A stretch of DNA of 64,000 nucleotides from Phytophthora quininea. Taxonomy: Eukaryota > Oomycota > Peronosporomycetes > Peronosporales > Peronosporaceae. The translations under genes were made by a program, and so were the position numbers. The notes beneath the pieces were generated by a model. The model ran no database searches and was not told where the DNA came from. It saw nothing but the letters and a program-made list of their open reading frames with translations. Shown piece by piece: positions 28,875-48,719 of the stretch (position 1 is the stretch's first letter; every line of letters starts with the position of its first letter). The stretch covers positions 62,001 to 126,000 of the forward strand of contig JAAVTG010000646.1 in NCBI GenBank assembly GCA_011947345.1, read 5' to 3'.

Positions 28875-29275
28875 CCTCCAAGCGTGCGGATGAAATTGAT
28901 TATGTCCAGTAGACCAAAGACGATACTATTGTCCCTTTCAGATAGAATGACCAAATTGGACTCTCAGACGAACGAAGACGGTCAGCACCAAGGCGAATGT
29001 CCTCCTACTACCACAAGAGCTCCGACGATTAATGTTTCGAGGCTAGCAGAACCAATCATTGTTTAACCAGTCTCAGCAATTACACTCTCTCCATTGCTGC
29101 GAGATTGTTGGCCAATCTGAGTGTTTTGCCTTACACGATGACTTGCGCTGGAGGGCAATTGTTCTGGTACTATCCGAGCGCCGCCGCAACGCGGCGGTGG
29201 TTTATGGTTGGATGCAGCTGTGGGACCGCCCTCCGCTACGCTCCGGCGGGATGATGTAGCTTTTCGCACGAATTA
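28875..29275. other. Upstream region of PPR-like gene
   Basis: 400 bp between the PPR-like ATG and the piggyBac-like element. No gene is supported. Confidence 0.4.
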
Positions 29276-29759: not shown

Positions 29760-32739
29760 CTAACTACTCCCTTCACTTGTTTCAATTGTCCATGGCTTTC
29801 TCTTCTTCGTCTGTGCGTTTGCGCTTGCGCTCGCGGAAGCGAATCTGCCTAAAATGCGGGGAATTGCAGTTCCATTTGCCCAGTTTTGATGCCATATCTG
29901 GCTGCACGTCAGCGTGTTGCCCAACTCCTCCCGCCGAACACGATTGCAAAGCGGGACGTAACCACCTCGAAGTTCTGTGCAGGTGGGGCAGAAATAGCTG
30001 CTCTCGAAGCTCTTCGTGTTGGGCTCCGCCATGGCAGAGCAGACTTTGCAGAGGTGTTGGCGTCTCTTCGGGTCGCGCCCCCTTCATACATGTCGTCGGT
30101 ATTCACCAATGCGTGGTCGGCAGAAGGTGTTGGTACGGTCACCAAGTCCTCTGCGTTGATGTTGCTACGCAGCGTCACCTTGGTGACATTCAGGAGCTCC
30201 ACATGCAAGCGACGCATATACTCAGACCGAGTAGGTACGCGCTCCCCTTCTTCTTCAGTACCAACTTGTGCAAAATGAATCCGTTGACGATTGCCATGTC
30301 CACAAATGTCAGGAACAACTGCCTGTAGTACTTCTTGAAAGCCACGCACCGCTGAATGGAGTAGCTTTGAAGCCTCAGCTGGTCGTGGTAGTCAACTCCC
30401 CCATGCCAGCATGATACTCAGCTATCAGCTGAGGACATGGCACTGTAGCTCTATCGCTCTCTCCTTTGTCCCTCCGCAACACAGTTGTTGGCGTCGTCGC
30501 ACAGCCTGTGGCGATCATGTGCACTGGCCTCGAATCCATCCAAGCCACTGCTATCAACTCCGGGTAATTTTTGCTTGGGCGATACGGTACGCGCCACGTG
30601 GCATTCCCTTTGGCCGAGCCTTCTGCGGGAACTGGATAGCACGAGGCCATCCAAGCCTGTCACTGCGATGCGTCCCCACGTAATAGTAGCCCATGCTGAG
30701 CATTGACAGCACTAGAGCGCATGAGCTGTAGAAGTTGTCCGCAATGATCAGCCTCTTCCCGGGCTGGCCGTCGAGAGCCTTCGTGATGTTTCGGATGACT
30801 GCCTTCTGTGCAACGCCTTTTGCCAGCCTTGCGTTGCTTTCTTTGCCGAGATAAACCTCAACTCTGTATGATACAGCATAACAAACGCCAGAGCATACAG
30901 CATTGTGTTAGAATTGATCGCCTTCATCTGTATGATACAGCTTTGTTATTCTGTACATACAGAATACTCAACTCTGTATCAACAGCACAGATGACTTACC
31001 GCGAACAGTAGCCGGTATCGGCGCAGCACGTCATGTAGCATTTGGTTCCATACTTGTGCGGCTTGTCCTTGTTGTAGACTCTGATTGGATTGAACTTGCT
31101 TCTGTTGGGAATGGTTCCCTCGTCGAAACTGATTCTCGACCCAAGCCGGTAGCCCCGTCGAAAGGTTTTCTCCATCACCTGCAAGACAGGTCGAACCTTC
31201 CAGGCCTTGTCTGTTGCTGCGTTACTGGACGAGTTGCAGGAGAAATGCAGGTAGCGTGTGACGGTCTTGAAGCGATCTCGCTTCATGTACCTACCAAACG
31301 TGCCACGAGGCACTGCTCCATCTTCTCGAGTGGCCCAGTGCTTTTCCAAACCATCAGTGTGCCCACAGAGCGCCCTCGATATCAAAAGACCAATGACATG
31401 CAATATCTCATGTGCTTTGATTGGCTTGACACGCCGCAGATTTTCCTCGAGCTCTTCAATAGTTGATACACGCTTTCGAGGGTCCTTTGCCTGGACCGCC
31501 AGCTGCTTGGCACGCTGCTGCTGGGCTACCAGAGGAATGCACTCCACACGGTAATCGTTCGTCTCCTTTTCAATGCGAATCCACAGTCGCTTCGGAAGGA
31601 AGTAAAAGAATAAGCCGAGCGGAGATTCAGCAAATGCCGCAGCGGATCTTGTTGGCCCGCAGGATCCGTTGTACAGATCACCAGCTCCGGGAAGCTGCAG
31701 TTGGGCTACAGTCAACACGATACAGAATTAATTTACTAGCGATGAGCGTATTCTGTAGCAGACAGACTTACCAGAGTGATACTGATCGTAGATGTTCCAG
31801 CCTGACAGCCCGAGTTCCCTCATGGCGCCATCGTCTTGTTCGAATAAACCGCTCTCGTCTTCGAAGTCGCTGTCTGACTCCACCTCGCTTTCGTAGTCAT
31901 CCGTCTCAGGCACTGGCACCTCTAACTCATCGTCACTGATTCTGTCGTCGTCATCGTCGGTGTCAACCCCAACGTCCCCGCACAGATTGATGTCGTCAAC
32001 CGCTACAGGCCCGAACAAATTCTCGCTTCGCAATGCATCCATGAATCGATCGCAATCGAACAGCTCAATATAGTTGTCACCATCGCTGGTCCTCGTCCTG
32101 CGCGCAGAATTGTTGTCTTCTGTGGTACGTTCTTCTGTCGCATCACCTTCTGTATGGACTTCTTCTGTGGGGGCTCTTCTGTATGATACAGAGTTGAGGT
32201 GAATAAGTCATCTGTATCCTCCTGAGCAGCTGCTGCTGGTGCTGGGTCTTCTTCTGTATCCTCCCGAGTAGCTGCTGCCGGCGTTGGGGCTTCTTCTGTA
32301 TCCACTTGAGTAGCTGCTGCCGGCGCTGGAGATGGGTAATCAGCTCGACTAGCGCCTTCGAAAGCAGCAACCTGGATAGCAGACTGCGTTACGGAACCCG
32401 CAGCAGCCAAGGGGGCTCTGTGGGCACTGTAACGACCTGTTCCGCAGTGGATGATGGGGGAATCGCTGCAACATCCCTTCTGCCCGTGCGAAGGCAAGTA
32501 AATCTCGTGTCCCTGTGATAGCCGCGTTAGTGAGTGTAATAGTAAGAAAACAGCAAATACGTACCAACAAAGTAGTCCAAGTTTCGCCTCGACTCATCCA
32601 GACGCCCTTTGATACCAGGCTTGACGTAGATGTGGTCCCTGCTGAGGCCTCGCGGCTTCCTTGGCTTCCACCCCGCCTTGGTCAGCTCGCGCCAGAGCTG
32701 CTTGAACGTCTTCTCGTCGGGCATCGTCGGTTGTGGCAA
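29760..32739 (-). pseudogene. piggyBac-type (DDE_Tnp_1_7) transposase, spliced and frame-broken
   Basis: Reading leftwards from an ATG near 32721-32739: KTFKQLWRELTKAGWKPRKP, an intron (GTACGT..TCACAG, about 32510-32560), an Ala/Glu repeat region, an acidic domain (about 31780-32040), GLSGWNIYDQYHS, a second intron (GTAAGT..CTGTAG, about 31705-31770), then the catalytic core. The core has IGLLISRALCG, RYMKRDRFKTVTRYLHF, SRISFDEGTIPNRS (first Asp), a 136-bp intron at 30864-30999, RLIIADNFYSSCALVLSMLS (second Asp), GGVDYHDQLRLQSYS (third Asp, in a shifted frame), and a C-terminal Cys-rich finger (HLCKVCS..YFCPTC..VPLC). These are piggyBac family landmarks. At least three frame changes and a stop mean this copy is probably inactive unless the sequence has errors. 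Confidence 0.8.
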
Positions 32740-33004: not shown

Positions 33005-34300
33005 TTAATCTAAAACGTACAGGCATATAAAACGTGTCATGAAAATTGCCAAGTGCCATTTGTCCAACATAAAGCTAGGTTCTAGTTCGTAGTGGCAAGC
33101 TACTACATCTAGCCTAGAAATGCACCTCGACTCCTAATCGAAAATCTGCGTGTACACGATGTTTCTCGTGTACACTCCTCCGTCCGGATCTACCAACTCT
33201 TGGTACTCAATCAACGCCTTGAACTTGCTTCGAGAGGTCACGCAAGACAACGCCACATACAACTGGCTATGCGAAAAGCACGGGAAGCCAAGTACAGCCC
33301 CAAGTTTAACACCGTCTGACCTTGGGCCGTGTTAATCGTCATGGCGAATGATGGTTGCACGGGGAACTGCTTTCGTCGTAGCCGGGAGGGGAAATCGGAG
33401 CTGTCGTCGTCGCTCACGAACATAATTCTCGGGGTGAGTACTTCTTGGCCTGTTCGTTCTCCAGTCATAATTGTTGCTCTAATGACGTGGTCCTTCAAGT
33501 CGACTATTCGTAGACGCGTTCCGTTGCACAGTCCAAGATCCGGGTTCAGATTTCTCATCATCATCATGGGGATGCTCTTCTTGAGCAGTAGTCTGTGAGG
33601 TGGAATCCCGTTAATGTTCACCGAGTGGAGGAACTCCTGCTCGAAAAGTGTTCCGTCATTCTCCTCCACCGAGTCCATCAACAAATACTCCCGCGCTGTC
33701 TCCGGAAGTCGAGCTGCGACTGCCTTGTTGATTCTCCGTACCGTCTCGTTCGTAGTCGTCAAAATGGTCCGACTGGCAAAATATTCATCACTCGCAACCT
33801 CCGGATTGGCAACGTCGGCATACATTGCGTCAATGATGCGGGTCATACCCCTTGGTATTGCCCCTGGAGCTATTTCCTCGTCCTCGTCGTCTTCTACAGG
33901 AGGATCTGGGATCAGCATATTAGCTGGAATCTTGATGTAGTCATTGCCAAGATCAGCACGTTTTTCGTGCCGACCCTCTCCAACGGCAAGCAAAAATTCA
34001 GAGAAAGAGAGGATATCCTCATTGTTAGGCTCTCGCGCGGGCGGGCCAACGGACGACTATCACCTGGAACGACCACGATAGTCATCACGGTCCTACCCGA
34101 ACTTTACGCTGTTGCCCGTTTTACCACTGTTTGTGCGTCGATACACAATAGAACCGACTTGGCTGAAATGAAAACAAATGTATTGGTAGAGGCTATTGAC
34201 AGTCAATGGCCTATCCCTAGCGGTAGCGACGGCGACGCGCGGTCTGTCGCTGGCGGAGTCGGCGGCGTCGACAACAATGGCGAGCTTTGCGAGGTGGTAG
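33005..34300 (-). pseudogene. Helitron Rep/helicase (PIF1-like) C-terminal remnant
   Basis: The minus strand at about 34060-33130 reads EPNNEDILSFSEFLLAVGEG, IKIPANMLIPDPP, MYADVANPEVASDEYFASRT, LNPDLGLCNGTRLRIVDLKD and QPSFAMTINTAQGQTVLNLG. Then, after a frame change near 33300, it reads FSHSQLYVALSCVTSRSKF. NGTRL and the FAMTINxxQGQT / QLYVALSR motifs are the last helicase motifs (V-VI) of PIF1-type Helitron helicases. The N-terminal Rep half is missing and the right side is cut by the gypsy LTR at 34301. No Helitron end (hairpin plus CTRR) was identified. Confidence 0.75.
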
Positions 34301-35380
34301 TGTGGTATAGGATTCCATGTGAAAACTCGTTGGTAGTACGGATAGACTCCACCCACAACAATACGTCAACCAGGAAGGTCAACGAGAGTTGGGGCTCAAA
34401 TCTGAAGACCCAGATTCAGCCCTAGCACCGGGACTGACTGGTCTTGCGATCCGTCCACGCAAACTTCCCAAGTAAACAAACGCCACTAGCACGAGCTCGC
34501 TAGCGCGCCAAACCTCGCTGGCCCAACAGCAGAAGGGTCCAAAGCCAATTAAGGCCGACTGCGAGTCCATCGAGGTCTCAGCCTGCGGTGACCTTTAGAG
34601 AAGCGGGGAGAACACTCGACCCCGAACACAAGCGCTGGCAATTCAGCCGTCACGCTATACACACTCAACCTTGCCACAAACTCTTGGCTTGGCCGAGGGG
34701 CGAGCACTGTCCTCACGGATAAACGTGCCCACCGACAGACATAACCCGCTCAAACGGGCGGATCCAGACGCAACGTACCGAAGACGATTCCGCTGCCGGA
34801 CTTGGCCCTTGTGTGCTTGAGGGGAAATTCTGTTCTGTATATGTAGTGCCCATTCGGGCTTATGTAAATCCTATCTTTCCTACTTTCCATACAAATATGC
34901 AGTGAAATATGATCCGTTTCCTAACTGCGACCTCGCTGAACCCACCGCCGAGGTCCCCGAAGCGTCGCCGAGCTCTCAGACTGGCCACCGAGGTTTCGGA
35001 GCGGTCGGGTCGTTGCTAGCGAGCCCTCCCAAGAGTCATCGAGGATCCAGCTGTAGCCAACGAGCTTTCCCAACAGGCACTGAGGCTCCCAACCGTCGCC
35101 GGGGCTTGGGAAGGGTCGCCTGGATCTTTGTCCGTTGGAAAGGTGACGTCGACGTGTCACCGAACATTCTGAGGAATGGCCAATCACAGCGCCTTCCGTT
35201 GGGCATAATGGTTCAATCCACAAAAATGATTCCCGCCGACTGACCATTGAGACTTCGCCAGACTTAAAAATCCAGCCAATCAGGGAAGACTCCGTTGGGA
35301 ATGACCGTGAGCGAATCCTCGCCACGCATCACGATGCCTCACGACTCGTCCCTGTTTCCCAGGCAAATCGCTTTACCACA
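34301..35380 (-). repeat. 3' LTR of the gypsy element (left copy)
   Basis: 1,080 bp, beginning TGTGGTATAG and ending TTTACCACA on the plus strand. It is nearly identical to 47648-48719; the main differences are a 9-bp stretch (ATCTTTCCT-like) present only here and scattered substitutions. Confidence 0.92.
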
Positions 35381-35535
35381 ACTGCCCCTGGCCCGACGCG
35401 AACCTCCCGATCGGCGAGCGTCTGGACATCTGCCTTCGCTCGCGTTGACACGGTTGCTCGTTGCTTCTACACCTCGCATCGCGATGTTGGTGGGTAGCTC
35501 GAAGCAGTAGGCGTTTGACTGGTTTGGCTGACTCG

Positions 35536-38500
35536 ATGTCTTCCTCGCAGGATCGTGCCGAGGCGGCCGAGGTCTCGTCGACTACTCAGTCAGCTCCACC
35601 CAGTTCCTGTGCAGCTTCGTCTGGCCCAGGGACCCGTTCGATGGCCGCGGTGACCTCATCTGCGCCTGCGGCGGCTCGTGCAGCTCCCGTTAACCCGACG
35701 CAGATTCATCGTGGGGCGCTCGTTGAACTTGTCAAGAGCTCGGTGGAGTCGTCGTTGCATGGCTTCGCGGTATCCTTGGATGCCAAGCTTGCGCAGGTGA
35801 CCAAGACTGTGTTGTGCCAAGCTATTCATCCTCCAGCCGTCGGGGATCGAGCTTTTGAAGCTGCCCTGGAGCGCGCCGGAAACCTCGCTGAAGTCTGTGC
35901 GCAGTCCGTGTCTGGGGTCATTCCTCCGGTTGACCTCGACAACCTGGTGGGTCGCCTTAAGGCGGATTCGGAGGCCGCGCGCGCGAGGGCGGCCGCAGTT
36001 CAACGCTCACTGAACACCGAGATCGGCCTGAAAGAGAACGCGCGGCTGATTGCATCACATGCGACGGCCGAGGTGGAGCATCTCAAGCGACAGCTCCGTT
36101 CCCAAGAACACACCATCGCCTCACTTGGTTCAAAGCTGAAGGTAATGGACGAGAAGTTGGCGCGCGTGACGGACACCGAGAACTCGCTGAGGCTTCAGAT
36201 TGAAGCGCGCGACAAGTCTATCCATGAACAAGAGCGACAGATCCAGCGTGAGCGTGAGGTCTTCAAAGGGAAGATCGCCGAGAATTCCAAGACCGAAGCC
36301 CGTCTGCATTCTTTGCTGTCCGCGTCGTCGGCTCCAGGGTCTGCGTTGGATCGTCAGCGTGAGCTTCGCATTGAAGATCTCCAGCGGCGCGTCTCTAAAC
36401 TCTCTCATGCCAATGCAATTCTTCGGTCTCACGTCCAAGATCGGCAGTTAGACGCCGACACTCTCGTCAAGGTCATGGAAGGTAAGGCCTCGTTGCTGTC
36501 CTTGTCTCCAACATAATTTGACTCCTCGTCAATGTTTTAAGGTTTGCTAGCGGAGGAATTGGACTGGTCTACGCTGGGACTTAGTTCCGCCGAGTTTACA
36601 CGCCTCTCGGCGCTACAGTCAACAGCGCGGACTGCGTTTGAGAAGTCCAAGCTAGCTGAGGATGCCGCCCAGTCAGTCCACAAGAAGAAGCACAGGAACG
36701 CACACAAGCGGCTGCGTCAACTCGACCAGGACCCTCCTCCGAGCTCATCTGCTCGTGGGGACTCCCTTCCAGTAGCCACCGAGGTTTCGTCATCTGTTGG
36801 TTGTTTGGCTCTGTCAATGGCAGAGGCTGGTCTTGGTGACTCCGACTCGGAGCCTGAAACCTCAGCAGCTGTCGAGACTTCATCCCGACGGGGTCTCCAC
36901 AAACCACAGGCATGGAAAAGAGGGCCAAAACGTCGCCGGCTTCGATCCCCTGGTCACAAGTCCTGCAAGGCTGCTTCCCACAAGGCTTCTCCAGGGCCTG
37001 CTTCACCTGTGTCGCGTCCTGCGACAAGTTCTCCACCACAGTGGTTTAACGACAGCCAAGATGACTCGCTACCGTCGACGCCTACGGAATCTAACGTCCA
37101 AGGGACTCCGCTTTCCAGCTCGTCGGCTGATGCAAGCACTCGACTGAGTCCAGCGAGCTCTCATCCGTCACCTCCAGTCCCTCCAAGCTCTTCCCGCCGA
37201 GGCACACCTTCGCGAGGGGCCTCTCGTCGTGCAGTTCAGAGGAGTTCGCTGTATCAGCAGCAGGAGGCTGCAGACGATGATGATTATCTCGGTATTGATG
37301 ACGATGGATTCACTATGTCGAGGACTGCCCCTGTGGTGATCGACCTCTCTTCCGGACCGTCGCAGGCAGAGTCTTCGTTGGGCACTGTGGAGGTCGCTGG
37401 AGCAGTTCCCGTGGAACTTGAGTCGTCAACGAGTTCTCGTCGGTCTTCCTCTTCTGCCTCGAAGACTTCCCGCGAAATCGACAAAAGATCGGTGGGGCCT
37501 CCAAGTGATCCCGCCGGCAGTTCGTCTACTCCGACTGTCGCCAACAAGCCCGACACCCACGACGATCTCGATGTGCAGCGCCGTCGGGAAATCGACGAGA
37601 TGTTCGAGGAAGACTTGGATATCGTGGAGACTGACGCAGCACGAATTCTCGATCCCGTTCCCATTGCTCAAGATACCTCGGCTGGCTCAGCAGTGGAGTC
37701 CTCGTTGGACCACCCCCTGTTCCGGCTGTGGCCAATTCTCTGCCAGGTTCCGCCAACGAGCCCTCGTCGACCTCTCCTCCGGTGCCCCTGACTCGGCTGC
37801 GACGGCTCGGACCGCGTACCGAGGTCGTGGCCACTTTTGGCCAGAGACCTGTGGGGAATTCGAGCTCGGTGACTCCTGTTCCAGCCTTGCCTTTGGTTAC
37901 CGGTGGCGTTCCTCCACTGGTTCGTCCTTCTGGGCCGCTCCCCACCTGGAGCAACAAATTTATTGACATGACGTTCCACAAGCCCGGAGCCCAGGAATGT
38001 TGGTGGAGGATGTTGAATGTGACGACACCTCATGCTGTCTCGGGCGACGCCATGGTCCCGTGTGATGCTAAGGGCATTAAGGCGTTCGCAAACTACACTC
38101 ATCGGAATCATCCGTGGCAGACCCTCCGCCGACGGCTTCCTGAGAACGCTTCTCTGTTCGACACAACGGACTTTAATCCCGACAGCAATATTTCCACCCG
38201 TTCCAAGGACATGATGCTCCAGATTAAAAATGTGTGGCGAGCTGTGCGCGGATATGGACCCAAGGCAGATCTCGGCTTCGCTCTCTGGGAACGCTCGCAC
38301 TGGTTTCACGACCGATGTGTGGAGAATTACTTCCGCATGCTGGAACAGCAGTTGGATTCGAAGTCTCTTCCTGGCGAGGTTTCGGTCGAGAGTGGTCACC
38401 CTGATTCGGACGACCTTGCTGCTCTTGTCCTGTCATCCCGTGACGAATGGGCAAAGTATTCGAAGGCTCGAGGTAAGAGAGCAGATCGGCTTCGCCTGCA

Positions 38501-38969
38501 GATCCCCAGGAAGCTGTGGTATTGGTTCGTTGATGGCCCTGATGGGCACCAGCCTGTTCCCGAATATATTTTCGAGCCGTCGATGCTGCATTACCCCGTG
38601 GAGCAGTTGCTGTCGTTCCCTGCTGTCCCAGATTGGACTCTTGAAGTGGCCGGTATCGACCAGCGGGAGCCTTGGCGTTGCGGCTGGGTCAATGCTCCAC
38701 ATCTTCATCCGTTCAACACCACGTTCTTCCCGTGTAATGCATCGGAGGTTACGCCATTTATTCCTCGGCGCAAATCGGCTTCCAAGGTGAATGCGGTAAT
38801 CTCAGTCGACCCAGCAATACAGGATATTGCTGAGGACACTTGGAGAGACGAGATGGTCACCCCACCGAGTTCTCGCCACGCGTCGGACTCAGAATCTGAA
38901 GCCAACGACTCGCCACCAGCAGCAGATGGTTCTCAACTCGCCAGCTGGCGCAAGCTGCTGCTGACGTGA
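35536..38969 (+). CDS. Antisense extra ORF of the gypsy element: coiled-coil / acidic / Trp-rich protein of unknown function
   Basis: Plus strand, opposite to gag-pol, between pol and the 3' LTR. Exon 1 is 35536-36481 from the ATG (MSSSQDRAEAAEVSS); a 60-bp intron (36482-36541, GTAAGG..TTTTAAG) joins VMEG to LLAEELDWSTLGLSS. One frame change near 37708 sits at a run of five C; with one more base, about 1,124 aa. Residues ~130-310 form a long coiled coil (ERQIQREREVFKGKIAENSK). The middle is Ser/Pro-rich with basic patches (KRGPKRRRLRSP, a likely nuclear signal). The end is a compact Trp/His/Cys-containing domain (CWWRMLNVTTPH, HWFHDRCVENYFRML, PRKLWYWFVDGPDGH). I do not recognise this domain. 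It is not an envelope: no signal peptide or membrane helix. Confidence 0.75.
36482..36541 (+). other. 60-bp intron in the antisense ORF
   Basis: GTAAGG donor, TTTGAC-like branch region and TTTTAAG acceptor. Splicing joins two long frames exactly (GAA G + GT TTG), and the unspliced frame stops at 36514-36516. Confidence 0.7.
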
Positions 38970-39268
38970 ATGGGGCTGAGCAGGCTCGTTGACCTGAGTT
39001 TTGTGTGTGTTTCTTCATGCTTCAGCTCATAGTGCATCTACCGAGGGTTTTAAGCGGAGCTGGTCGTGTCGTAGTGTTTTCTTTTCTTGCAACTTTATTC
39101 CTTGTAATCATTTTCACGTTCATCGATGTAACATGCAGGGTTGTTGGTGCAATAGCTTTTTCGTCTGTAGCGACGGGTTGCACCGTCCCGTCGTCAGTTC
39201 AATCCTCGACAGACATAGCCAGATAACTCTTACGTGATCTGGTTGCTGCCGGTAATTCCACCGAGGTT
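38970..39268. other. Spacer between pol stop and antisense ORF stop
   Basis: 299 bp between two convergent reading frames inside the element. It must carry the 3' end of the antisense transcript. No further feature recognised. Confidence 0.4.
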
Positions 39269-42187
39269 TCATTCCTCATCAGCGACCTGCACCATCTGAA
39301 GACGCTGGTCGCTTTTCTTTCTGCGCAAATAATCAAACAAGAGTCCGCCGCAGGACAGGTTTGCCATTGGTTCCCACGTGGGTTCATCATAGCCGACCCA
39401 CTTTACTTGGAACTCACGCACGGAGCGTCCAGTCGATGTTGACAAGGGCATTCGATCGCCGAGGATTGCTTCCACCTCGTATTCACCAGTTACTTGGTCA
39501 GGTTCCCAACTATCTTCGGGTAGCAATTCCTCGTCAAAGTCCAGGCGAGTGTCGTCCGTCACCCCAAGGGCTAGTCGAGTCGTCGGTCGATCCGAGAACT
39601 CGTTTACTGCTTTGAGCCGAGAGATGTGCACCACCGGATAGAATCGGTATCCACTTCGATCGGGGAGCTCTAACTCGAAAGCAAAGTCCTCGACCTTGCG
39701 CTTGATGCGGAAAGGGCCGTGCCACCGATGCGCTAACTTCTTGACGAGACCCGGCTTCACCCGTTCCATGTAGAGCCACACCCGGCTCCCTTCTGTGAAC
39801 GGAGACCTCGGTGGCCGAGAGTGCCGATCGTCTGGACTGTTTCCACTACTTGATGAGGTCACCGAGGTTTCATTATCATTCTGGCTAGGATTGGAAGCTT
39901 TTTCCAGCCGACTGAGTGTCTTGTTGTGCTCATCAGCTCTGCGCTTCTTTTCGGTCGCTTGGTAGTCCTTGGCCATGACAAGAGCGATTTCTTGTTGCCG
40001 ATTGACTTCTCGTCGCCACGCTAAAGCGTCAGACTGTCTGCCGTGACCTCGTTGGAGGGATGTTGTCATTGCTTTCATTGTTGACTGTGCGTCCCAGCCA
40101 TGAACGAGGTAGAACGGAGTCTCCTTCCTTGTCGTATCTTGCGAGTTGTTAATAGCAAACACTAATCGTTCTGCGATTTCATCCCAGTCTCGTTGCAACG
40201 GGTCTTCCACGTACACTCGGACTGAAGTCATTACTGACTTCACCGAGCGTTCCTGTTGCCCGTTTGCTTGCGGACGATAACTCAGAGTGGCTCTGGAGCG
40301 TGATTGCAGCATTTCTGCGAACACCTGGAAGACTTCGCTCATAAAGCGAGGGTCTCTGTCGTGCCGAATCAGTGACGGCGCGCCGAAACGTCGGTAGATA
40401 CATTCTTCGAAAGCTTGAGCTACCTTTATCGCGGAAGTGTCAGACATTGCCTTGGCGATGACAAATCCAGTGAATGAGCATTGGAACAGCAGCAAGGCAG
40501 TGTTCCCACTTCGGCTTTTCGGTAGCGGGATAACGAAATCCATGGAGACAATTTGGAATGGTCTGTCGGCCAGGACGTTTCCTGGTGACATTCCCTTCAG
40601 TTGTGGTCGGCTTTTGCTGGTGCAGCAATCGGGGCACGATTTGACATGCTTCTCCACATCAGCAAAGAGTCCGATCCAATAGAAGTCTGCTTTGACTCGG
40701 TGGTATGTCCGAGTGACGCCCTGATGACCCCCTTCCAACGTGTCGTGGCAAGTGTGCAGTACTTCCTGAATCATCGTTGTGGGCACGACCAGCCGGAGCT
40801 TAGTCTCTTCTCGCGGGTTTCGGCTCGACCGAGGTTTCGACCCAAGGTAGTAGAGCAGACTATCTTCAGAAAGCACAAAGTTATCAGCCCATTTGAGAGC
40901 ATCTCGTGCTTCTTTATAGGGTAAGTCTTCCGTAGACCCTCTTAGCGCCAGCTTGAGGTTTTTCCATCGTAGCTCTTCATCTTGAGCCTTGCTGATGCGC
41001 CGGCGACGTTCGGCTTGGATTTCTACAGGGTCCAGTTCCTCCACTGAGGGTTCATGAGGAGTTGTTTCTTCTCCCCGCGCCAGGGCTTCGGCGTGTCCCG
41101 AAGTCTCGTTAGGTTCTACTGTGGTCCCTTGAGGCTTCGTTGCAGCTTGATCTGTATCTGGTGGAACCTCGTTGGCAAACCTAACGCGTTTCCGCTTAGA
41201 CTTCGCTTGTTGTCGTGTCATCACAGAGATCTCAGCGTGCTCCAGTTCCTCAGGGGCGTATAACATCTCTTGAATTCGATTTAACCCCGTCAATTCGGCT
41301 TTTCGTGCTTCGCCCAGTATCACTCGGCTTGTTTTCGTCTCCAACGACTCGGTGGCTAGTGAATCAGCTGCTGCGTTGTATTCTCGTACTACGTGCAAGT
41401 ATTTCACCGTTTTTAGCTTTGCCACCAAATCTTTGTGCCGATTGAGCTGTGCCATTAAAGCTTCTTTCCGGCAGGCGATCACCCCTAGGGATTGCTGGAT
41501 CGCGAGTCTAGAGTCGCCAACGATTACTAAATCCTCGGCACCTTGTTCAATGGCAGCTATGACGCCATTGTTCATGCCGGTGTACTCAGCGATGTTTACC
41601 GTTGTCGACGATAGGTAAGCGTTCGCAGCGATCGCTATAGACCACTCCGGTAATTTCCACACAATCCAAGAGCAGCTTCCATAGCCACCATACTTTTCCG
41701 TCTTTGCTGAGCCGTCAAATGACACAACGAATCCTCTGTAGTCACGTGGCAACTTCGCATAGAGCAAATTCGGGTCCATCCGAATCATCGGTGAGCCTTT
41801 GCTCGGTGGAGCTATCGGAGCTAACGTATCTTCGAGATCCATGAAGTTAGTGATTGTTGACTGCAGCAACTGTGTGAAGGTACAATCTCGCTCTTTGACT
41901 CGTTCGATCTTTAAATGCCATGGCGACAACATCACTGCAAACTGGGTTGTCCGTCCGAACAATGATTTGGACTTGTGCACCCATTCAAGAGTGGAAAATC
42001 TCGTGTAGACGTGAATCACTCGGCCGGCTAGCTGTGTGTAGCACACCTTCAGTAATAGCAACAGAGCCAACACCTCTTTCTCCGCGGGGTGGTAATTCAT
42101 TTCACTGTCTTTGAGAACTCGTCCCGCGAATCGGACCGATGCAGCTTTCCGTCGTGTTCTTGCATCAATGTCGTGCTTAGAGCCCAC
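39269..42187 (-). CDS. Dual RNase H, integrase and chromodomain of the gypsy element
   Basis: 972 codons, open. First comes a RT-linked RNase H remnant (VRFAGRVLKDSEMNYHPAEK, then EVLALLLLLKVC). A second, plant/archaeal-type RNase H follows: FVVSFDGSAKTEKYGGYGS (Asp), AEYTGMNNGVIAAIEQGAED (Glu), VIVGDSRLAIQQSLG (Asp), REYNAAADSLA (Asp). The integrase has an HHCC finger (HTCHDTLEGGHQGVTRTYH.., CPDCC) and a DDE core (VSMDFVIPLPKS, RHDRDPRFMSEVF, RPQANGQQERSVK). Near the end, EYEVEAILGDR and FQVKWVGYDEPTWEPMANL form a chromodomain that may steer integration to marked chromatin. Two further indels lie just upstream (42110-42200). Confidence 0.88.
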   Translation of the reverse strand: MGSKHDIDARTRRKAASVRFAGRVLKDSEMNYHPAEKEVLALLLLLKVCYTQLAGRVIHVYTRFSTLEWVHKSKSLFGRTTQFAVMLSPWHLKIERVKERDCTFTQLLQSTITNFMDLEDTLAPIAPPSKGSPMIRMDPNLLYAKLPRDYRGFVVSFDGSAKTEKYGGYGSCSWIVWKLPEWSIAIAANAYLSSTTVNIAEYTGMNNGVIAAIEQGAEDLVIVGDSRLAIQQSLGVIACRKEALMAQLNRHKDLVAKLKTVKYLHVVREYNAAADSLATESLETKTSRVILGEARKAELTGLNRIQEMLYAPEELEHAEISVMTRQQAKSKRKRVRFANEVPPDTDQAATKPQGTTVEPNETSGHAEALARGEETTPHEPSVEELDPVEIQAERRRRISKAQDEELRWKNLKLALRGSTEDLPYKEARDALKWADNFVLSEDSLLYYLGSKPRSSRNPREETKLRLVVPTTMIQEVLHTCHDTLEGGHQGVTRTYHRVKADFYWIGLFADVEKHVKSCPDCCTSKSRPQLKGMSPGNVLADRPFQIVSMDFVIPLPKSRSGNTALLLFQCSFTGFVIAKAMSDTSAIKVAQAFEECIYRRFGAPSLIRHDRDPRFMSEVFQVFAEMLQSRSRATLSYRPQANGQQERSVKSVMTSVRVYVEDPLQRDWDEIAERLVFAINNSQDTTRKETPFYLVHGWDAQSTMKAMTTSLQRGHGRQSDALAWRREVNRQQEIALVMAKDYQATEKKRRADEHNKTLSRLEKASNPSQNDNETSVTSSSSGNSPDDRHSRPPRSPFTEGSRVWLYMERVKPGLVKKLAHRWHGPFRIKRKVEDFAFELELPDRSGYRFYPVVHISRLKAVNEFSDRPTTRLALGVTDDTRLDFDEELLPEDSWEPDQVTGEYEVEAILGDRMPLSTSTGRSVREFQVKWVGYDEPTWEPMANLSCGGLLFDYLRRKKSDQRLQMVQVADEE

Positions 42188-42203
42188 TCATTAGCAAACA
42201 GCA

Positions 42204-43761
42204 TCACGTGCACAGGCTTCGATCGGTCAAAGTGCCGGAGAATTGGAGCTTCCGCGACCTTTGCTTGAGCGCCGTGAAAGCTCGTTGAGCCGCAGAGAGG
42301 TCACCCCTGGGGCCAAAGTCGTCATCCTTCAGCTGGTACAGTGCTGCACCGTAAACAGCGAAGTCTTGGATGAACCTACTGTAGTAGTTCAAGGCTCCGA
42401 GAAACGACTGCATCCCTTTCTTGGTCTGAGGGAAGGAAAGCTCGGTAATGGCTTTCATCTTCTTGGCGTCGGCTTGTATGCCCCTAGCTGAGACTTCGTG
42501 CGACAAGAAGTCCACCTTCGACTGTGCAAAGATGCTTTTAGTGAAACTCACACTAATTCGGCATTCCGTGAATCGTGTCAGCAGTTGATCTAGAGTGGCC
42601 AGGCAGGACTCGAAAGTCTCGCCACCAAAGCAAATGTCATCCACAAATGATCGTCGATCGAAAACTGGCACTAACAAGCTCTCGTCGATCTCTCCATGGG
42701 CAAACATGTTGGCAACGGGGCTGTTGATCAGTTGCAGAACAGGGTCCGCTTCCACCGAGGTTTCACGGTCCGCCTCAAACTTGGTTCGAGGCGCAGTTCC
42801 AGAATTCGGCGGCACGAGGGAAACCTCGTCGGACCCTTTATGCCATAGTTTAGCTTGTTCTTCAGCCTCACGCATCAGATTTGCGTAGTGTTTCCATCCG
42901 CCTCTAGGCTGAACAAACCCCACAAGGCGTTGTCGATCATTCTCTGGTAAATCATCGGCGCGTTTTTAGACCGAACGGCATTCGCAGCCATTCAAAATGA
43001 CCCAGGGCACAAACAAACGCCGAGACCTTCCGAGCTCTCAGAGTCATCATTATGGCCCAGAAGCCGCTGGCAGCATCCAGCGAGCAAAACCAAAGGTAAC
43101 ACTCCAAATCCGTCAGCAGGTCGTCCACCAAAGGCATGGCGTACTCCATGATAGCCGTTACAGCATTTACCATCTTGTAATCGATGCACAGTCGAATATC
43201 TTGACCGTTCTTTTTCAGTACGATCACAATCGGCGAGGCCCATGGACTGTCCGAGAATGCGATTAGGCCTGCCTTCAAGAGTCCCTTCAGAAGCTCATAG
43301 AGTTGTCGGAGATGTCTGAGCGGTATTCGTCGAGCTCTCTGCTTGATTGGAGCGTGCCCTTGGACGTCGATATCACAAACCACCCCATAGGCAGGCGGGG
43401 GCAGCGCGTTGCCACTGCTAATCATTATTCCCTCGTGCTTCTTTAGCACTTGGACCAACCGTTTTTGTTGGGCTGCTGTCAGGTCGGGGTTAACGACGTT
43501 CGCTCCTGCGTAGTCGAGCACGGTCGTTGACTCCTCGGTGAGGTCCGGAAGGAACGCTAGTTCGTGAGCGTAGTCTTCCAACCCGATCTCATTTGCCGGG
43601 TGTTCGAACGAGTTCTCGTTCTTCCCTGACAGGGTAGCATTTCCCTCCGTTGTCAACCCTCGAGCGACCGAGACGAAGGTTTGTTCCAGCTGGGCTACGC
43701 TTCTACCCGAAACCTCGTTGGGGCATCCATGTCCGTCAGTAGTTTTGCCTGTCAGCATCAC
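42204..43761 (-). CDS. Reverse transcriptase of the gypsy element, frame-broken
   Basis: Frame 1 (43761-42952) holds RT motifs GLIAFSDSPWASPIVIVLKK, LCIDYKMVNAVT, FCSLDAASGFWAI and EWLRMPFGLK. A run of five A at about 42965 is one base short. Frame 2 (42923-42204) resumes with ALWGFVQP and has the catalytic box as RSFVDDICFGG (FVDD), then FLSHEVSARGI and SFLGALNYYSRFI. All gypsy RT motifs are present. An insertion of about 60 residues between the palm halves (EADRETSVEADP) is Ser/Glu-rich. Confidence 0.85.
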
Positions 43762-45260
43762 CCCATGTTGTCCCCTGGATCGAAGGGAATACCATCACAC
43801 CGAGCTTCTATGCTATGTGAGGTGTCCACCGAGCTTTCGTCGCTTTCTTGAGCCGTGCTGTCATCGTTTCGAAAAATCTTTTCCCAACGCTCAGCACAGC
43901 TTAATTGTCTATTGTCTCCAGCGGAAAGTTCGGCAGGACGTGCCCTGATTCCTTTAGGTGTGGAGTAAGCTGGTCTTTCGACCGGTGAGGGTTGAGCAGC
44001 AAGCCATCTGTCGTACAGGATCCGTTCCCGTTCCATCGTACTTCTGTCTTTCGATTCTGCATAGGCTAACACTTGCCATTCCTCATACTTCTTGGATGTC
44101 ATCTTGACGTATCCAGGAAACCTCGGCAAATCTCCAACAGGAACCAACTGCAACACTGGAAAATGCCGAGGACAACTCGTTAGTTGCTCGGTGACGTTTG
44201 TCAGCCGAACTACCCTTGGTTGCCCCCGCCAAAACGTCGTCACCGTTGGTACCCAGGCCGTTGTTCGCCTAACCCACACGTCATGTGTTTCCGCAGAGTG
44301 CTGTCTTCTGGGCAGTTTGAAGTAGGCCTGCTCCCGTCCGGGGATATTCAAATCCTCAATGGGCCCATAAGATGAATGGCTACTCATCCGGTCTTCGGCT
44401 GTCATGTTGGCGGTCTTGATCAAGGGAATCATGACCTCGTTTGGCAGTTGAGCGGTACTGTTGAACAAGTCCAGTCGGATTCCGGCCGGAATCATAAAGT
44501 CCGTTCCGAGCACCACGTCAACGCCAGCGTTGTGCTGCATGATCCAAATCTCAAACTCATAGACAGTATCCCATCCGAGAGTAATCTTGACCAGAGCTCG
44601 GCGAGTTGTTGATACTTTGCCTTCATTTATTCCTTGCACGTCGATGCTGCGACCATGACCTTGGATATCACGTATCCGCAGTTTCCGCGCAAAACTCGCC
44701 GAGATCACACTAACATTGGCGCCAGTGTCGAGGAGTATCCTCGTTCTGTTGTCGTTCAGCGCGCCTTTGACCAGCGCTCGCATCCTTATTCGTCGGTCGA
44801 ACTTCTTGGCCGACCACCAACCCAGTCGTTCTCCAGGTAATAGCTTCAGTACTTTCTGAAGCGGTCTTGCCTCGTTACACGTCACACTGGTTATCCATCC
44901 TTCTGTGCCATACGAAACCTCGTTGGAGCCGCTAGTGGTTCCTTGGTTCCGATAGGCACTTAATATACCTCCACCAAGGTTTCCGTCGTTGTCACTTTCA
45001 CTTTCCATCGCGTCACGCTTATCACCATTGTCGTAAGGCCATTCGCCGCCACCCACGAATGCGAAAATACAGTCCGCATCCATCGCTGGTTCGGCTAACT
45101 GTGGCAGCCCGATAGGGACCAACCCAGTCATAGTTGGCGAGCTGTCTAGTTTAAATGACCTTCGCGCACGACGGTCTGGAGCTCGTTTGGGAGCTCCTGA
45201 CTGCTGACCTTCGTGCGGACGAACTTGGCGAGGTCTTGAAAGTTGCGGTAGAGTTCGCAC
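43758..45260 (-). CDS. Aspartic protease region of the gypsy element
   Basis: One open frame. The catalytic motif LLDTGANVSVIS is followed by VDVVLGTDFMIPAGIRLDLF, the two halves of a retropepsin-like fold. Long Ser/Glu-rich sequence follows. It overlaps the gag end by about 110 bp in another frame and the RT frame by 4 bp at 43758-43761, where a GGGG run sits (ATGGGGTGATG). Either a ribosomal frameshift or a one-base indel links it to RT. Confidence 0.8.
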   Translation of the reverse strand: MRTLPQLSRPRQVRPHEGQQSGAPKRAPDRRARRSFKLDSSPTMTGLVPIGLPQLAEPAMDADCIFAFVGGGEWPYDNGDKRDAMESESDNDGNLGGGILSAYRNQGTTSGSNEVSYGTEGWITSVTCNEARPLQKVLKLLPGERLGWWSAKKFDRRIRMRALVKGALNDNRTRILLDTGANVSVISASFARKLRIRDIQGHGRSIDVQGINEGKVSTTRRALVKITLGWDTVYEFEIWIMQHNAGVDVVLGTDFMIPAGIRLDLFNSTAQLPNEVMIPLIKTANMTAEDRMSSHSSYGPIEDLNIPGREQAYFKLPRRQHSAETHDVWVRRTTAWVPTVTTFWRGQPRVVRLTNVTEQLTSCPRHFPVLQLVPVGDLPRFPGYVKMTSKKYEEWQVLAYAESKDRSTMERERILYDRWLAAQPSPVERPAYSTPKGIRARPAELSAGDNRQLSCAERWEKIFRNDDSTAQESDESSVDTSHSIEARCDGIPFDPGDNMG

Positions 45261-47545
45261 TGGCCCACGTCATGGACCTGTTTGCAGAACTTGCAACGTC
45301 GGTAACATCGGTGGGCTGAGTGCCCCGAGGCTCCGCAGGCGGCACACGGCCCGTACTGAGGGCGACGTTCTCTGGAGGAATCTCGGTTGTGATCAGTTCT
45401 TTGCTGACGACGGTCCGATCGTCCATATGTGCCTTCAGCTGCCGCACGACGTTCCGTGTCGTTAGCGGCGGCTAGGCGTCGGTCACAGTCTGACGAGAAA
45501 TCGTCGTCGCTCTCGTCATAGTACCGATAGTCGTCGAACGAGCTTTCATCCTCACTTTCGTCACTTCGGCGGGGCTTCCAGACATCGTTACTACGTCCGT
45601 TGGACTTCCGGTCGTCCAGTTCGGCTATTAAGTCATCCATCGAGGCTTCAGCGAGGGTGACTCTCGGGGCATTACGCGAGTCATCCCGTCGGTGGTCGTA
45701 CTCTCGGCGACGATCGCGGCGATCGTCTCGACGACTGAATCCCCATACGAATCCTCGTTGCGGCGATATTCACGTCGAGGCTCACCATCTCGTGCCCTGG
45801 ACGACCTTGACGAGGCGTCACGAGTCCTCGATGACGCGTCGCGAGTCCGGATCTTCTCTTCGCCCTTGAGCTTATCGAGGAGAATCTCTTCCAACTCTTG
45901 TGTGTCGGTGATCTGGCGGTCGTACAGCTCACGCATCAACTTGTCGTCTCCGCACGTGGTTAGAAACCTATGGATATGCTCCTTCCCGTGGCGTCCACCG
46001 TTGTCGAACTTCACTCGAGCTCCCTTAGCATAGCCATTCAGCCTATTGAGGTAGTCGCAGAGGTGCTCACTTTTCTCCCGCCGAGCACCAAAGTAGCGAT
46101 CCATGGCACTTTGCGAATGGTTCGTGCAGTAGTAGCTAATGAAGGCTGCGCTCAGTTTTTCCAGTCCTTGCGCACGTCCTTCTTGAGCTGCTTGAACCAA
46201 TATATGGCTCCTTCGCGCAGACTCAACTCGAACGGCGTGCACCACTGGTGCGACGGCGTCCGAGTCCCGTTCATCTCATAGACAAATGTACGCAACCACT
46301 GCAGTGAGTTTTCGCTCTTGCCTCGTTGTCCTCTGAACGGAGTGATGCGATCGAGAGGTCGATGTGTCGCCACCTCAAGCCTCGGTGTAGGGTCCGAGTC
46401 ATTCATCGTACTAAGCGCCAGTATTTGTCTCGTCAATTCGTGAGTAGGGTCGTTGTGGTCATCGTTGTCTTCGTTGTCACTCCACATGTTGTTACGCACC
46501 CGTGGCGAATCCTCGGTGGCCCGAGAGCGTGGGTCAGAGCGTAGTCCAGAACGCTGCCTGCTACCCACCGAGGCTCGGCGATCTTCCAGTTCTCGCTCCA
46601 GACGCTTTGTCCGACCTGTCGAGCGAGGTGTCACCATATGAGAGTCTTGGAAGTACGGCGATACCTCTTTGGAGGCAAACACTCTTGGAGAATCCTCGTC
46701 ACTGTCCCCTTCGTAAACCTTGGACCTCCCCGGGGTCTGAGGCAACGGAATATTGCGCGGATCGTTCATGTTCCGGGCAGGACGAGAAACCGGCTGCTTT
46801 CCCATGTTAATACCGACCACTCCGAAGGCTTCACGGAGTTTCTTCTTCCACTTGTGCAGCGTGGCCCCTGCCACCGCTGGCTCCCAGTCTTCCAGCGCTA
46901 ACTCCGACGGGTAGGCCATGGTCTTCAGTCCCATTGCAGTAAGCATCGAGACTGTGTCCTCGGCCACCTGTTTAGTCGTCATCGAGTTGACTGGCCATTG
47001 TAGTTCATCAGCTAATGCCGGCCAGTCAGCTCTGCGCGTGGGATGTGGTGCAAAGAGCTGCATCCACGGGTCTTTCTCGATCGCAGCGAAGCAGCGTTCG
47101 AACACTTGTTTGGCTGCAGGCGTGTCGCCGTTGATGGGCGGTCGAGACGCGGCCATCACCGAGCGTCGCGCTGCAGCCGTCGCCGAGGTTTTGACGCCCG
47201 GGGCGACTTCATCATAGTCATCTTCATCGGGATCAGATCCCGCCGCTTCCAGTTCGTTAGCGAGGTTACGCGTGATCCTTGGTGTCGTGCTGCGTCCAGA
47301 CGACAACACTGGTTCTTCCGGCGTCACTCCACTCACTTCGGCCACGGCGGCCTTCTCCTCGTAAACATCGTTATCCACATCCTCATGGTCATTGTCGTTG
47401 GCGTCCAGATCCCCTCCGAGTCCTCAAAGCTCACCGAGCGCTCGGTGATAGTCGCAACACGCGCCGTATCACCGGATGAATGCTCGGTGGATACTCCACC
47501 GGCCGTCGATGGGGTCGCTGGTACCGCATTCGATCCTTTCGCCAT
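45146..47545 (-). CDS. Gag of the gypsy element, frame-broken
   Basis: The ATG at 47545 (MAKGSNAVPATPS) is just downstream of the PBS. Frame changes occur near 47415 (GGGG run), 46160-46240 and 45630. Segments: an acidic/Ser-rich N-terminus, a capsid-like region (GAIYWFKQLKKDVRKDW, then FISYYCTNHSQSAMDRYF, then HLCDYLNRLNGYAKGARV), an Arg/Ser/Asp-rich linker, and two zinc knuckles at about 45305-45346 (CAACGASGHSAHRC, a C-x2-C-x4-H-x4-C) and right after it (CKFCKQVHDVGQC). It forms the particle and packages element RNA. Confidence 0.8.
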
Positions 47546-47625
47546 CTTCTTCACTTGTTTTCTTGGTTTTCTTCTTGCTCGATAACTTGGGACGTCTACA
47601 CAGACGGTTCACAAAGGCTCACTCA

Positions 47626-47645
47626 GTTCCCGGGTCGCGGCACCA
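47626..47645 (-). promoter_or_regulatory. tRNA primer-binding site of the gypsy element
   Basis: On the minus strand TGGTGCCGCGACCCGGGAAC starts two bases inside the 5' LTR. TGG plus 15-17 further bases complementary to a tRNA 3' end (..CGGCACCA) is the standard PBS form. I did not assign the tRNA. Confidence 0.75.
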
Positions 47646-47647
47646 GT

Positions 47648-48719
47648 TGTGGTATAGGATTCCACGTGAAAACTCGTTGGTAGTACGGATAGACTCCACC
47701 CACAACAATACGTCAACCAGGAAGGTCAACGAGAGTTGGGGCTCAAATCTGAAGACCCAGATTCAGCCCTAGCACCGGGACTGACTGGTCTTGCGATCCG
47801 TCCACACAAACTTCCCAAGTAAACAAACGCCACTAGCACGAGCTCGCTAGCGCGCCAAACCTCGCTGGCCCAACAGCAGAAGGGTCCAAAGCCAATTAAG
47901 GCCGACTGCGAGTCCACCGAGGTCTCAGCCTGCGGTGACCTTTAGAGAAGCGGGGAGAACACTCGACCCCGAACACAAGCGCTGGCAATTCAGCCGTCAC
48001 GCTATACACACTCAACCTTGCCACAAACTCTTGGCTTGGCCGAGGGGCGAGCACTGTCCTCACGGATAAACGTGCCCACCGACAGACATAACCCGCTCAA
48101 ACGGGCGGATCCAGACGCAACGTACCGAAGACGATTCCGCTGCCGGACTTGGCCCTTGTGTGCTTGAGGGGAAATTCTGTTCTGTATATGTAGTGCCCAT
48201 TCGGGCTTATGTAAATCCTACTTTCCATACAAATATGCAGTGAAATATGATCCGTTTCCTAACTGCGACCTCGCTGAACCCACCGCCGAGGTCCCCGAAG
48301 CGTCGCCGAGCTCTCAGACTGGCCACCGAGGTTTCGGAGAGGTCGGGTCGTTGCTACCGAGCCCTCCCAAGAGTCATCGAGGATCCAGCTGTAGCCAACG
48401 AGCTTTCCCAACAGGCACTGAGGCTCCCAACCGTCGCCGGGGCTTGGGAAGGGTCGCCTGGATCTTTGTCCGTTGGAAAAGGTGACGTCGACGTGTCACC
48501 GAACATTCTGAGGAATGGCCAATCACAGCGCCTTCCGTTGGGCATAATGGTTCAATCCACAAAAGTGATTCCCGCCGACTGACCATTGAGACCTCGCCAG
48601 ACTTAAAAATCCAGCCAATCAGGGAAGACTCCGTTGGGAATGACCGTGAGCGAATCCTCGCCACGCATCACGATGCCTCACGGCTCGTCCCTGTTTCCCA
48701 GGCAAATCGCTTTACCACA
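47648..48719 (-). repeat. 5' LTR of the gypsy element (right copy)
   Basis: 1,072 bp copy of the left LTR. Because gag-pol reads on the minus strand, this right copy is the 5' LTR and should hold the promoter of the genomic RNA. Confidence 0.92.

What the first reader, a model, noticed from the sequence alone, without database searches (positions are those of the whole stretch)
35536..38969. A spliced ~1,120-codon antisense gene carried inside a gypsy retrotransposon
Between pol and the 3' LTR, on the strand opposite to gag-pol, two long frames join cleanly through a canonical 60-bp intron and encode a coiled-coil, Ser/Pro-rich, possibly nuclear protein with a compact Trp/His/Cys-containing end. 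It has no signal peptide or membrane helix, so it is not an env. An intron can persist in a retroelement only if the gene is antisense to the genomic RNA, because splicing then never touches the replicating template; the orientation therefore makes sense. Extra ORFs exist in some plant gypsy elements; I know of no described function for one of this kind in oomycetes.
Basis: partly seen in the sequence, partly recalled or inferred. Interest (0 to 1): 0.88.

Follow-up and report, generated by a model that had tools for sequence, protein, structure and literature searches.

The report
Spliced antisense gene in oomycete retrotransposons
Several families of Chronos-like retrotransposons in what is likely an oomycete genome carry, on the strand opposite to their replication genes, the same gene with predicted introns and clear protein-level selection; its product likely works in the nucleus to regulate the element, as antisense genes of some retroviruses do.

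Summary
The window carries a 14.4 kb LTR element (34301-48719) with the domain order of oomycete Chronos elements; an antisense gene lies between pol and the 3' LTR. The gene sits beside pol in 9 of 10 related regions fetched from the same genome, in at least three divergent families; related proteins occur in Phytophthora cactorum, P. idaei and P. fragariaefolia. A second, upstream intron is predicted. dN/dS is 0.16-0.18 in the gene's frame (one divergent pair, dS 1.3-2.2) against 1.3-2.1 in the strand's other frames. No RNA evidence was available. Function is inferred: a nuclear regulator or anti-silencing factor; no family matched above cut-off and both fold predictions failed. Antisense genes in this position are known from plant Retand/Grande elements. 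This one, unrelated by Pfam and with introns, is a new variant of a known kind.

The parts
34301..35380 (-). 3' LTR of the element (sense of the element is the - strand); predicted to hold the antisense promoter
   Evidence: 98.3% identical to 47648-48719; edges TGTGG...CCACA. Promoter role inferred: the candidate start codons lie about 60 (family B) to 155 bases from the LTR edge.
35484..35489 (+). candidate first coding exon of the antisense gene (ATG TTG); the alternative start is the ATG at 35536
   Evidence: Place homologous to the end of the short first exon MSGFVGRAASRAMQAAGLTTPPPPL of family B; ATG present in 3 of 4 family-A copies, GTG in C265 (read by eye). Weakly supported in family A.
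35490..35550 (+). predicted upstream intron, GTGGGT...CTCGCAG, 61 nt
   Evidence: Same place as introns of 57 nt (family B, 4 of 4 copies read), 61 nt (C204) and a 39-nt candidate (C858); donor GTGGGT in 4 of 4 family-A copies
35551..36481 (+). main exon with predicted coiled coil
   Evidence: Open frame; conserved in families A, B, B' and in P. cactorum, matched in C858; dN/dS 0.18 between C204 and C78
36482..36541 (+). intron, GTAAGG...TTTTAAG, 60 nt
   Evidence: Same position and phase in 11 of 11 copies compared, lengths 60/70/71/79 nt
36542..38969 (+). last exon: Ser/Pro-rich linker, then conserved Trp/His/Cys domain; interrupted in this copy by one frame change between 37635 and 37791
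   Evidence: Frames; interruption in family A; dN/dS 0.16-0.18 for C204 vs C78
36679..36717 (+). first basic cluster, nuclear-localisation-like (HKKKHRNAHKRLR)
   Evidence: Aligned KRRRLR-type clusters in B, B', P. cactorum and P. idaei; absent from the P. fragariaefolia protein and not covered in C858; coordinates; NLS reading inferred
36913..36945 (+). second basic cluster (WKRGPKRRRLR)
   Evidence: Same lineages as the first; coordinates; NLS reading inferred
37246..37293 (+). conserved short motif SLYQQQEAADDDDYLG in the linker (SLLxEQExAxDxDVLG in relatives)
   Evidence: coordinates
37908..38846 (+). conserved C-terminal domain, fold unknown
   Evidence: 52 of 319 columns identical in the five or six lineages that cover them; homologues in three Phytophthora species
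39269..42187 (-). pol 3' part: gypsy RNase H, second (archaeal-like) RNase H, integrase, chromodomain
   Evidence: Pfam RT_RNaseH, RVT_3, Integrase_H2C2, rve (just below its cut-off), SH3_Tf2-1, Chromo
42204..43794 (-). reverse transcriptase, in two frames in this copy and in C830 and C552
   Evidence: RVT_1 in both pieces, one of them below cut-off; frames
43758..45269 (-). protease region
   Evidence: Asp_protease_2
45146..47423 (-). gag region, frames interrupted
   Evidence: frames; Retrotrans_gag PF03732 E 3e-6 in the C830 copy; CCHC knuckle at 45346
47628..47645 (-). putative primer binding site TGGTGCCGCGACCCGGGA
   Evidence: Just inside the 5' LTR in the window and in C78; no tRNA was matched to it
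47648..48719 (-). 5' LTR

Best explanation
This is a conserved antisense accessory gene of Chronos-like LTR retrotransposons, with predicted introns, that is likely transcribed from inside the 3' LTR and whose protein likely enters the nucleus and regulates the element's own expression or chromatin state. Shown here: the position inside the element, conservation across families, related proteins in other species, protein-level selection and conserved splice sites. Inferred: transcription, splicing, nuclear entry (two basic clusters), self-association through a predicted coiled coil, and the regulatory role. The conserved Trp/His/Cys end would be the effector or nucleic-acid-binding part. Antisense placement keeps the introns out of the RNA that is reverse transcribed, and would let expression of the accessory gene be timed apart from genomic RNA synthesis.
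For: Inside the element: LTRs on both sides, pol adjacent; 9 of 10 fetched related regions have pol next to the gene, and 8 of 10 show an LTR pair, 96.9-100% identical. 4-base target duplications in C830, C552 and C78, read by eye. Selection: C204 vs C78 dN/dS 0.18 (coiled-coil exon), 0.18 (linker), 0.16 (C-terminal), with 95% intervals 0.11-0.25, 0.12-0.28 and 0.10-0.23; the other two frames of that strand give 1.3-2.1. Introns: (11 of 11 copies compared). Other species. Own gag exists on the other strand, so it is not a displaced gag. Basic clusters shared by A, B, B' and two Phytophthora species. Analogues with nuclear proteins: maize Grande gene23 (PMC7264820, passages and sections 5 and 7 read); HTLV-1 HBZ, whose antisense mRNA starts in the 3' LTR and is spliced (PMC1459196, abstract and outline read).
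Against: No transcript evidence. Family A, including the window copy, has the frame interrupted in 4 of 4 copies, and no copy read has the antisense gene open from end to end. pol is spread over several frames in 9 of 9 copies. Some pairs show dN/dS near 1 (C78 vs C665 0.78 and 0.82, vs C664 0.97, vs C662 linker 0.86; A exon win vs C265 1.22 with interval 0.26-3.9), partly because frame-broken stretches were aligned. No Pfam or NCBIfam match above cut-off and no PDB match, so nothing independent points to a nuclear or DNA-binding function. The P. fragariaefolia protein lacks the basic clusters. Both AlphaFold models failed.
Confidence: 0.6

Rival explanations
1. Anti-silencing factor: the protein would counteract host silencing of the element rather than tune its transcription. 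This is the same gene with a different target.
For: Fast evolution relative to pol (C-terminal domain 37-39% identical between A and the other families while RNH-INT is 65-71%) suits an arms race. In P. infestans small RNAs map to gypsy elements on both strands (PMC3522703, passages read).
Against: No direct evidence; fast evolution also fits a loosely constrained disordered protein.
Confidence: 0.25
2. The antisense RNA rather than its protein is what matters, for example as a regulator of the sense RNA through duplex formation.
For: PMC7264820 (passage read) raises this for antisense transcripts of plant elements; the window's frame is broken.
Against: Codon-position-specific constraint in both exons and the linker and maintenance of frame across introns of four lengths need a translated product.
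Confidence: 0.07
3. A host gene picked up recently by one element, or another transposon nested in it.
For: Protein has no similarity above cut-off to gag, pol or env families.
Against: Same place and intron in at least three divergent element families of this genome, and the same protein family in three Phytophthora species (whether it lies in elements there was not tested). No other repeat of 100 bases or more was found inside the element around the gene.
Confidence: 0.04
4. A chance open frame.
For: Many long spurious frames occur in this stretch.
Against: dN/dS in the true frame against shifted frames, conserved splice sites, homologues elsewhere.
Confidence: 0.01

Closest known systems
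Antisense additional ORFs between pol and 3' LTR of plant gypsy elements (aORF-3R: Grande gene23, RIRE2, Retand ORF4/TRP28)
   Same: Same position and orientation; present in most copies and several species; nuclear protein in Grande (PMC7264820). Retand belongs to the Tat elements (recalled), and Tat, like this element, carries a second RNase H (PMC5348765).
   Different: No Pfam match to Transposase_28 (PF04195) at E up to 10 (HMMER's filters drop most matches above about 0.1). Two predicted introns here; the word intron does not occur in the main text of PMC7264820 or PMC11963269. Different host lineage; this element has a chromodomain.
HTLV-1 HBZ and other deltaretroviral antisense genes
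   Same: Antisense gene in the 3' part of a retroelement; HBZ is spliced, starts in the 3' LTR (PMC1459196 abstract) and is nuclear (PMC11963269 passage).
   Different: No bZIP match and no sequence relation found; about 1,100 codons here (sum of the frames); no transcript shown here.
Chronos Ty3/Gypsy elements of oomycetes
   Same: Two RNase H domains and chromodomain after integrase (PMC5348765 abstract and sections 5 and 9 read).
   Different: That paper's main text has no occurrence of 'antisense' or 'intron'.
Boty element of Botrytis
   Same: Listed in PMC7264820 as a non-plant element with an antisense ORF between pol and 3' LTR.
   Different: Protein not compared here; a fungal host.

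Membership tests
LTR retrotransposon, Ty3/gypsy | paired LTRs, PBS, gag, PR-RT-RNH-INT order | tested here: met
Chronos group | gypsy RNase H followed by a second, archaeal-like RNase H | tested here: met
   RT_RNaseH then RVT_3; by eye the second domain keeps D-E-D-R-D (SFDGSAK, NIAEYTG, VGDSRL, VVREYNAAAD) and the first has lost aspartates (VYTRF, MLFANEW); the residue rule is from PMC5348765
Chronos group | chromodomain at the end of pol after integrase | tested here: met
   PF00385 at 903-950 of 972, E 1.4e-6
Chronos group | RT phylogeny inside the Chronos clade | not tested
   no Chronos reference sequences at hand; PMC11541908 (passages read) mentions other, unclassified chromodomain LTR elements in oomycetes
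Chronos group | host in Peronosporales or Pythiales | tested here: inconclusive
   genome unnamed; the relatives found are from Phytophthora
Antisense additional ORF between pol and 3' LTR (aORF-3R) | coding frame antisense to gag-pol, between pol and 3' LTR | tested here: met
Antisense additional ORF between pol and 3' LTR (aORF-3R) | present in most copies of a family and in several species | tested here: inconclusive
   many copies and three other species hold the gene, but the share of element copies that carry it could not be counted because the pol search did not complete
Retand TRP28 protein | Transposase_28 domain PF04195 | tested here: not met
   no match at E up to 10 in P0001, P0002, P0003 and the C78 frame
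HBZ-like deltaretroviral antisense protein | bZIP domain | tested here: not met
   no bZIP match in Pfam; only a sub-threshold leucine-zipper match, TSC22, E 0.029, 15 bits against a cut-off of 30
HBZ-like antisense gene | spliced antisense mRNA starting in the 3' LTR | not testable with these tools
   splice sites conserved but no RNA data
env-like gene | transmembrane helix, sense orientation | tested here: not met
   antisense; highest 19-residue hydropathy mean 1.48 in the pieces tested

The most novel reading that the evidence does not exclude
Chronos-type elements of oomycetes independently evolved what plant Tat/Retand elements and deltaretroviruses have: an antisense gene for a nuclear regulator next to the 3' LTR, here spliced. 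In both Chronos and Tat this comes together with a second RNase H, which would make the pair a recurring package in the evolution of LTR elements towards retrovirus-like control.
Probability: 0.35. Interest if true: 0.82.

Novelty: new variant of a known kind. Interest (0 to 1): 0.6.

Why it matters
Antisense accessory genes of LTR elements are known in plants, a fungus and some retroviruses, but their function is largely open outside retroviruses. A further lineage with an apparently unrelated protein, conserved introns and measurable selection suggests that the arrangement is useful to such elements in general. Because the introns lie on the strand that is not reverse transcribed, a splice-junction read would be strand-specific proof of expression. 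It also likely re-labels a set of Phytophthora 'hypothetical proteins' as retroelement genes.

Tried and rejected
Env, displaced gag, recent host-gene capture, nested transposon, chance frame: rejected for the reasons given under the rivals. A third intron to explain the frame change at about 37.7 kb: 14 GT..AG pairs of 40-200 nt and the right length class span it, only one with an ordinary third donor letter and pyrimidine before AG (152 nt), so there is no support. Structure: two AlphaFold jobs, both pLDDT 35, so no fold search was run. SUMO-interacting-motif reading of VVIDL at 37333-37347: similar words occur in B and P. cactorum but do not align well; a lead only, the motif recalled. Oomycete initiator motif scan in the LTR: isolated matches, motif recalled from memory, uninformative. 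Viral contigs: 3 pattern matches, none confirmed as a relative. P0001 as protein query: none of 7,994 scored candidates at E 1e-3, although the C78 frame and P0002 found relatives. How many pol copies lack the antisense gene could not be counted: the whole-genome pol search did not complete.
Full report
What is there. The window (G000:C640:62001-126000 of an unnamed 87.2 Mb genome) holds an LTR retrotransposon at 34301-48719, read on the - strand. The LTRs are 98.3% identical and a putative primer site TGGTGCCGCGACCCGGGA follows the 5' LTR. gag lies on the - strand (Retrotrans_gag in the C830 copy; CCHC knuckle), followed by protease, reverse transcriptase, two RNase H domains, integrase and a chromodomain. 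Between the end of pol (39269) and the 3' LTR (inner edge 35380) lies a gene on the + strand.

Gene model. In this copy the last exon changes frame once between 37635 and 37791. Two of the three other family-A copies (C830, C265) show the same change and the third (C552) differs by one base in the same short run; none is in frame there. I could not decide between a lesion inherited by the family and an assembly error. Upstream, families B (4 of 4 copies read), B' (C204) and C (C858) show another short exon and intron; the family-A counterpart is predicted at 35490-35550 with a start at 35484, the alternative start being 35536. The 39-nt candidate in C858 is short for an intron and is the weakest case; C204 has GTG where family B has the ATG.

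Conservation in the genome. The last 353 residues give 43 matches in the genome and the main exon 26, both lower bounds and many of them fragments. I fetched regions around ten matches. In 9 of 10 pol lies next to the gene (in C265 the match stops before pol) and in 8 of 10 an LTR pair is seen, 96.9-100% identical (none in C265 and C467). C830 has two identical 1,072-base LTRs and the target duplication gata; C552 has cgat and C78 has ccat, all read by eye. The window copy shows no duplication. The copies fall into family A (window, C830, C552, C265), family B (C78, C561, C662, C665, C467, also C664, C63, C329), a B-like line B' (C204, C312) and C (C858); decayed A-like relics are at C534 and C628.

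Splice sites. The intron sits at GAAG|GT...AG|G in 11 of 11 copies compared, with lengths 60 (A, 4 copies), 70 (B, 5), 71 (C204) and 79 (C858). These leave remainders 0, 1, 2 and 1 on division by three, yet each splice gives the same conserved junction (GLLAEELDW, GIASGDL, GLSTGELDW); C662 has changed letters (AAG preceded by a stop codon, and a stop soon after). The four loci were not included. The acceptor is AAG in family A and CAG in the others. Intron sequence is weakly conserved: C78 vs C204, 39 of 66 aligned bases.

Selection. Nei-Gojobori dN/dS for C204 vs C78 is 0.18 in the main exon (277 codons, dS 1.3), 0.18 in the linker (276 codons, dS 2.2, near saturation) and 0.16 in the C-terminal part (374 codons, dS 1.7). 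Reading the same aligned bases in the two other frames of the strand gives 1.3-2.1; on the opposite strand 1.1-2.3 except one frame at 0.28-0.33, which shares codon third positions and is expected to mirror the signal. Young pairs agree: C-terminal part, C78 vs C561 0.26 and vs C467 0.20, against 1.0-3.2 in the other two frames of the strand. Against: C78 vs C665 0.78 (C-terminal) and 0.82 (linker), vs C664 0.97, vs C662 linker 0.86, vs C329 0.57, where frame-broken stretches were aligned; A exon win vs C265 1.22 (interval 0.26-3.9), A C-terminal win vs C265 0.71. A against B or C is close to saturation at silent sites: many comparisons give no ratio, the rest 0.2-0.4; B linker vs C858 gives 0.96 on 78 codons. 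Relics: 0.33 (0.22-0.48) in C534 on the + strand, with a shorter - strand piece at 0.55 (0.22-1.10); in C628 0.43 in the main exon and 0.68 in the linker.

Other species. Protein searches found an 804-residue protein of Phytophthora cactorum (cluster of 17 members, 53% identical to the C78 end), further P. cactorum and P. idaei proteins, and one of P. fragariaefolia at 34%, the names shown being 'hypothetical' or 'unnamed'. In one search only the 7,988 best candidates were scored. Whether these genes lie in elements was not tested. P0013 of P. cactorum contains MSGFIRRTAARAL, in line with the family-B first exon. In the C-terminal part 52 of 319 columns are identical in the five or six lineages that cover them, 13 of them W, H or C. 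The gene changes faster than pol: A vs the other families 37-39% against 65-71% for RNase H-integrase.

What the protein looks like. A predicted N-terminal coiled coil, a linker that is 27% Ser+Pro, two basic clusters shared by A, B, B', P. cactorum and P. idaei but not by the P. fragariaefolia protein, and a motif SLLxEQExAxDxDVLG, then the Trp/His/Cys domain. No membrane helix in the pieces tested. No Pfam or NCBIfam match above cut-off; sub-threshold ones are TSC22 (E 0.029), CC4_CEP85 (0.046), Nucleoporin_N (0.035), PSDC (0.093), SMC (0.033) and topoisomerase VI (0.58), and the only PDB hit has E 1. Two AlphaFold models were unusable.

State of the copies. pol is spread over several frames in 9 of 9 copies read, and no copy read has the antisense gene open throughout (one search's output was cut for part of C561 and C78). 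With LTRs up to 100% identical this suggests either mobilisation in trans by elements not read here or indel errors in the assembly; I cannot separate these.

How it most likely works. Inference: an antisense promoter in the 3' LTR starts a transcript, since the family-B start codon lies about 60 bases from the LTR edge. Splicing makes the mRNA; the protein enters the nucleus through its basic clusters, associates through the coiled coil and regulates the element, either its transcription or its silencing. The sense genomic RNA does not carry the splice sites in usable orientation, so the introns are kept.

Relation to what is known. Antisense genes in this position occur in plant Grande, RIRE2 and Retand elements and in fungal Boty; Grande's is nuclear, Retand's carries TRP28 (PMC7264820, passages and sections 5 and 7; PMC11963269, passages and section 12). 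HBZ of HTLV-1 is the proven case of a spliced antisense regulator from a 3' LTR (PMC1459196, abstract and outline; PMC8622228, passages). Additional ORFs of bdelloid LTR elements are expressed from spliced messages, but no antisense gene is mentioned in the passages I saw (PMC5408684). Domain order and RNase H residues put this element with Chronos of oomycetes (PMC5348765, abstract, sections 5 and 9, passages); that text does not mention an antisense gene. My literature searches listed no report of such a gene in oomycetes; some searches listed 20 of 22, 12 of 101 and 12 of 78 papers, titles and abstracts only, and the library holds open-licence papers only.

Noticed in passing
window 30999-31727 (-): piggyBac-type transposase piece (DDE_Tnp_1_7, E 9e-30) beside the element; the piggyBac label is recalled.
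   Followed up: partly
window 33241-34056 (-): Pif1-type helicase piece (Pif1_2B_dom, E 3e-18), possibly from a Helitron, close to the outer edge of the 3' LTR.
   Followed up: partly
window 42940-43000 and copies C830, C552: Reverse transcriptase changes frame at the same short A run in all three full-length family-A copies, although C830 has identical LTRs: mobilised in trans, or a repeated base-calling error.
   Followed up: partly
window 27069-28925 (-): 619-residue open frame with no Pfam match at E 0.01.
   Followed up: no
G000:C534:118814-119296 and C628:36080-36559: Decayed relics of a further line of the antisense gene, 68% and 64% identical to family A.
   Followed up: partly
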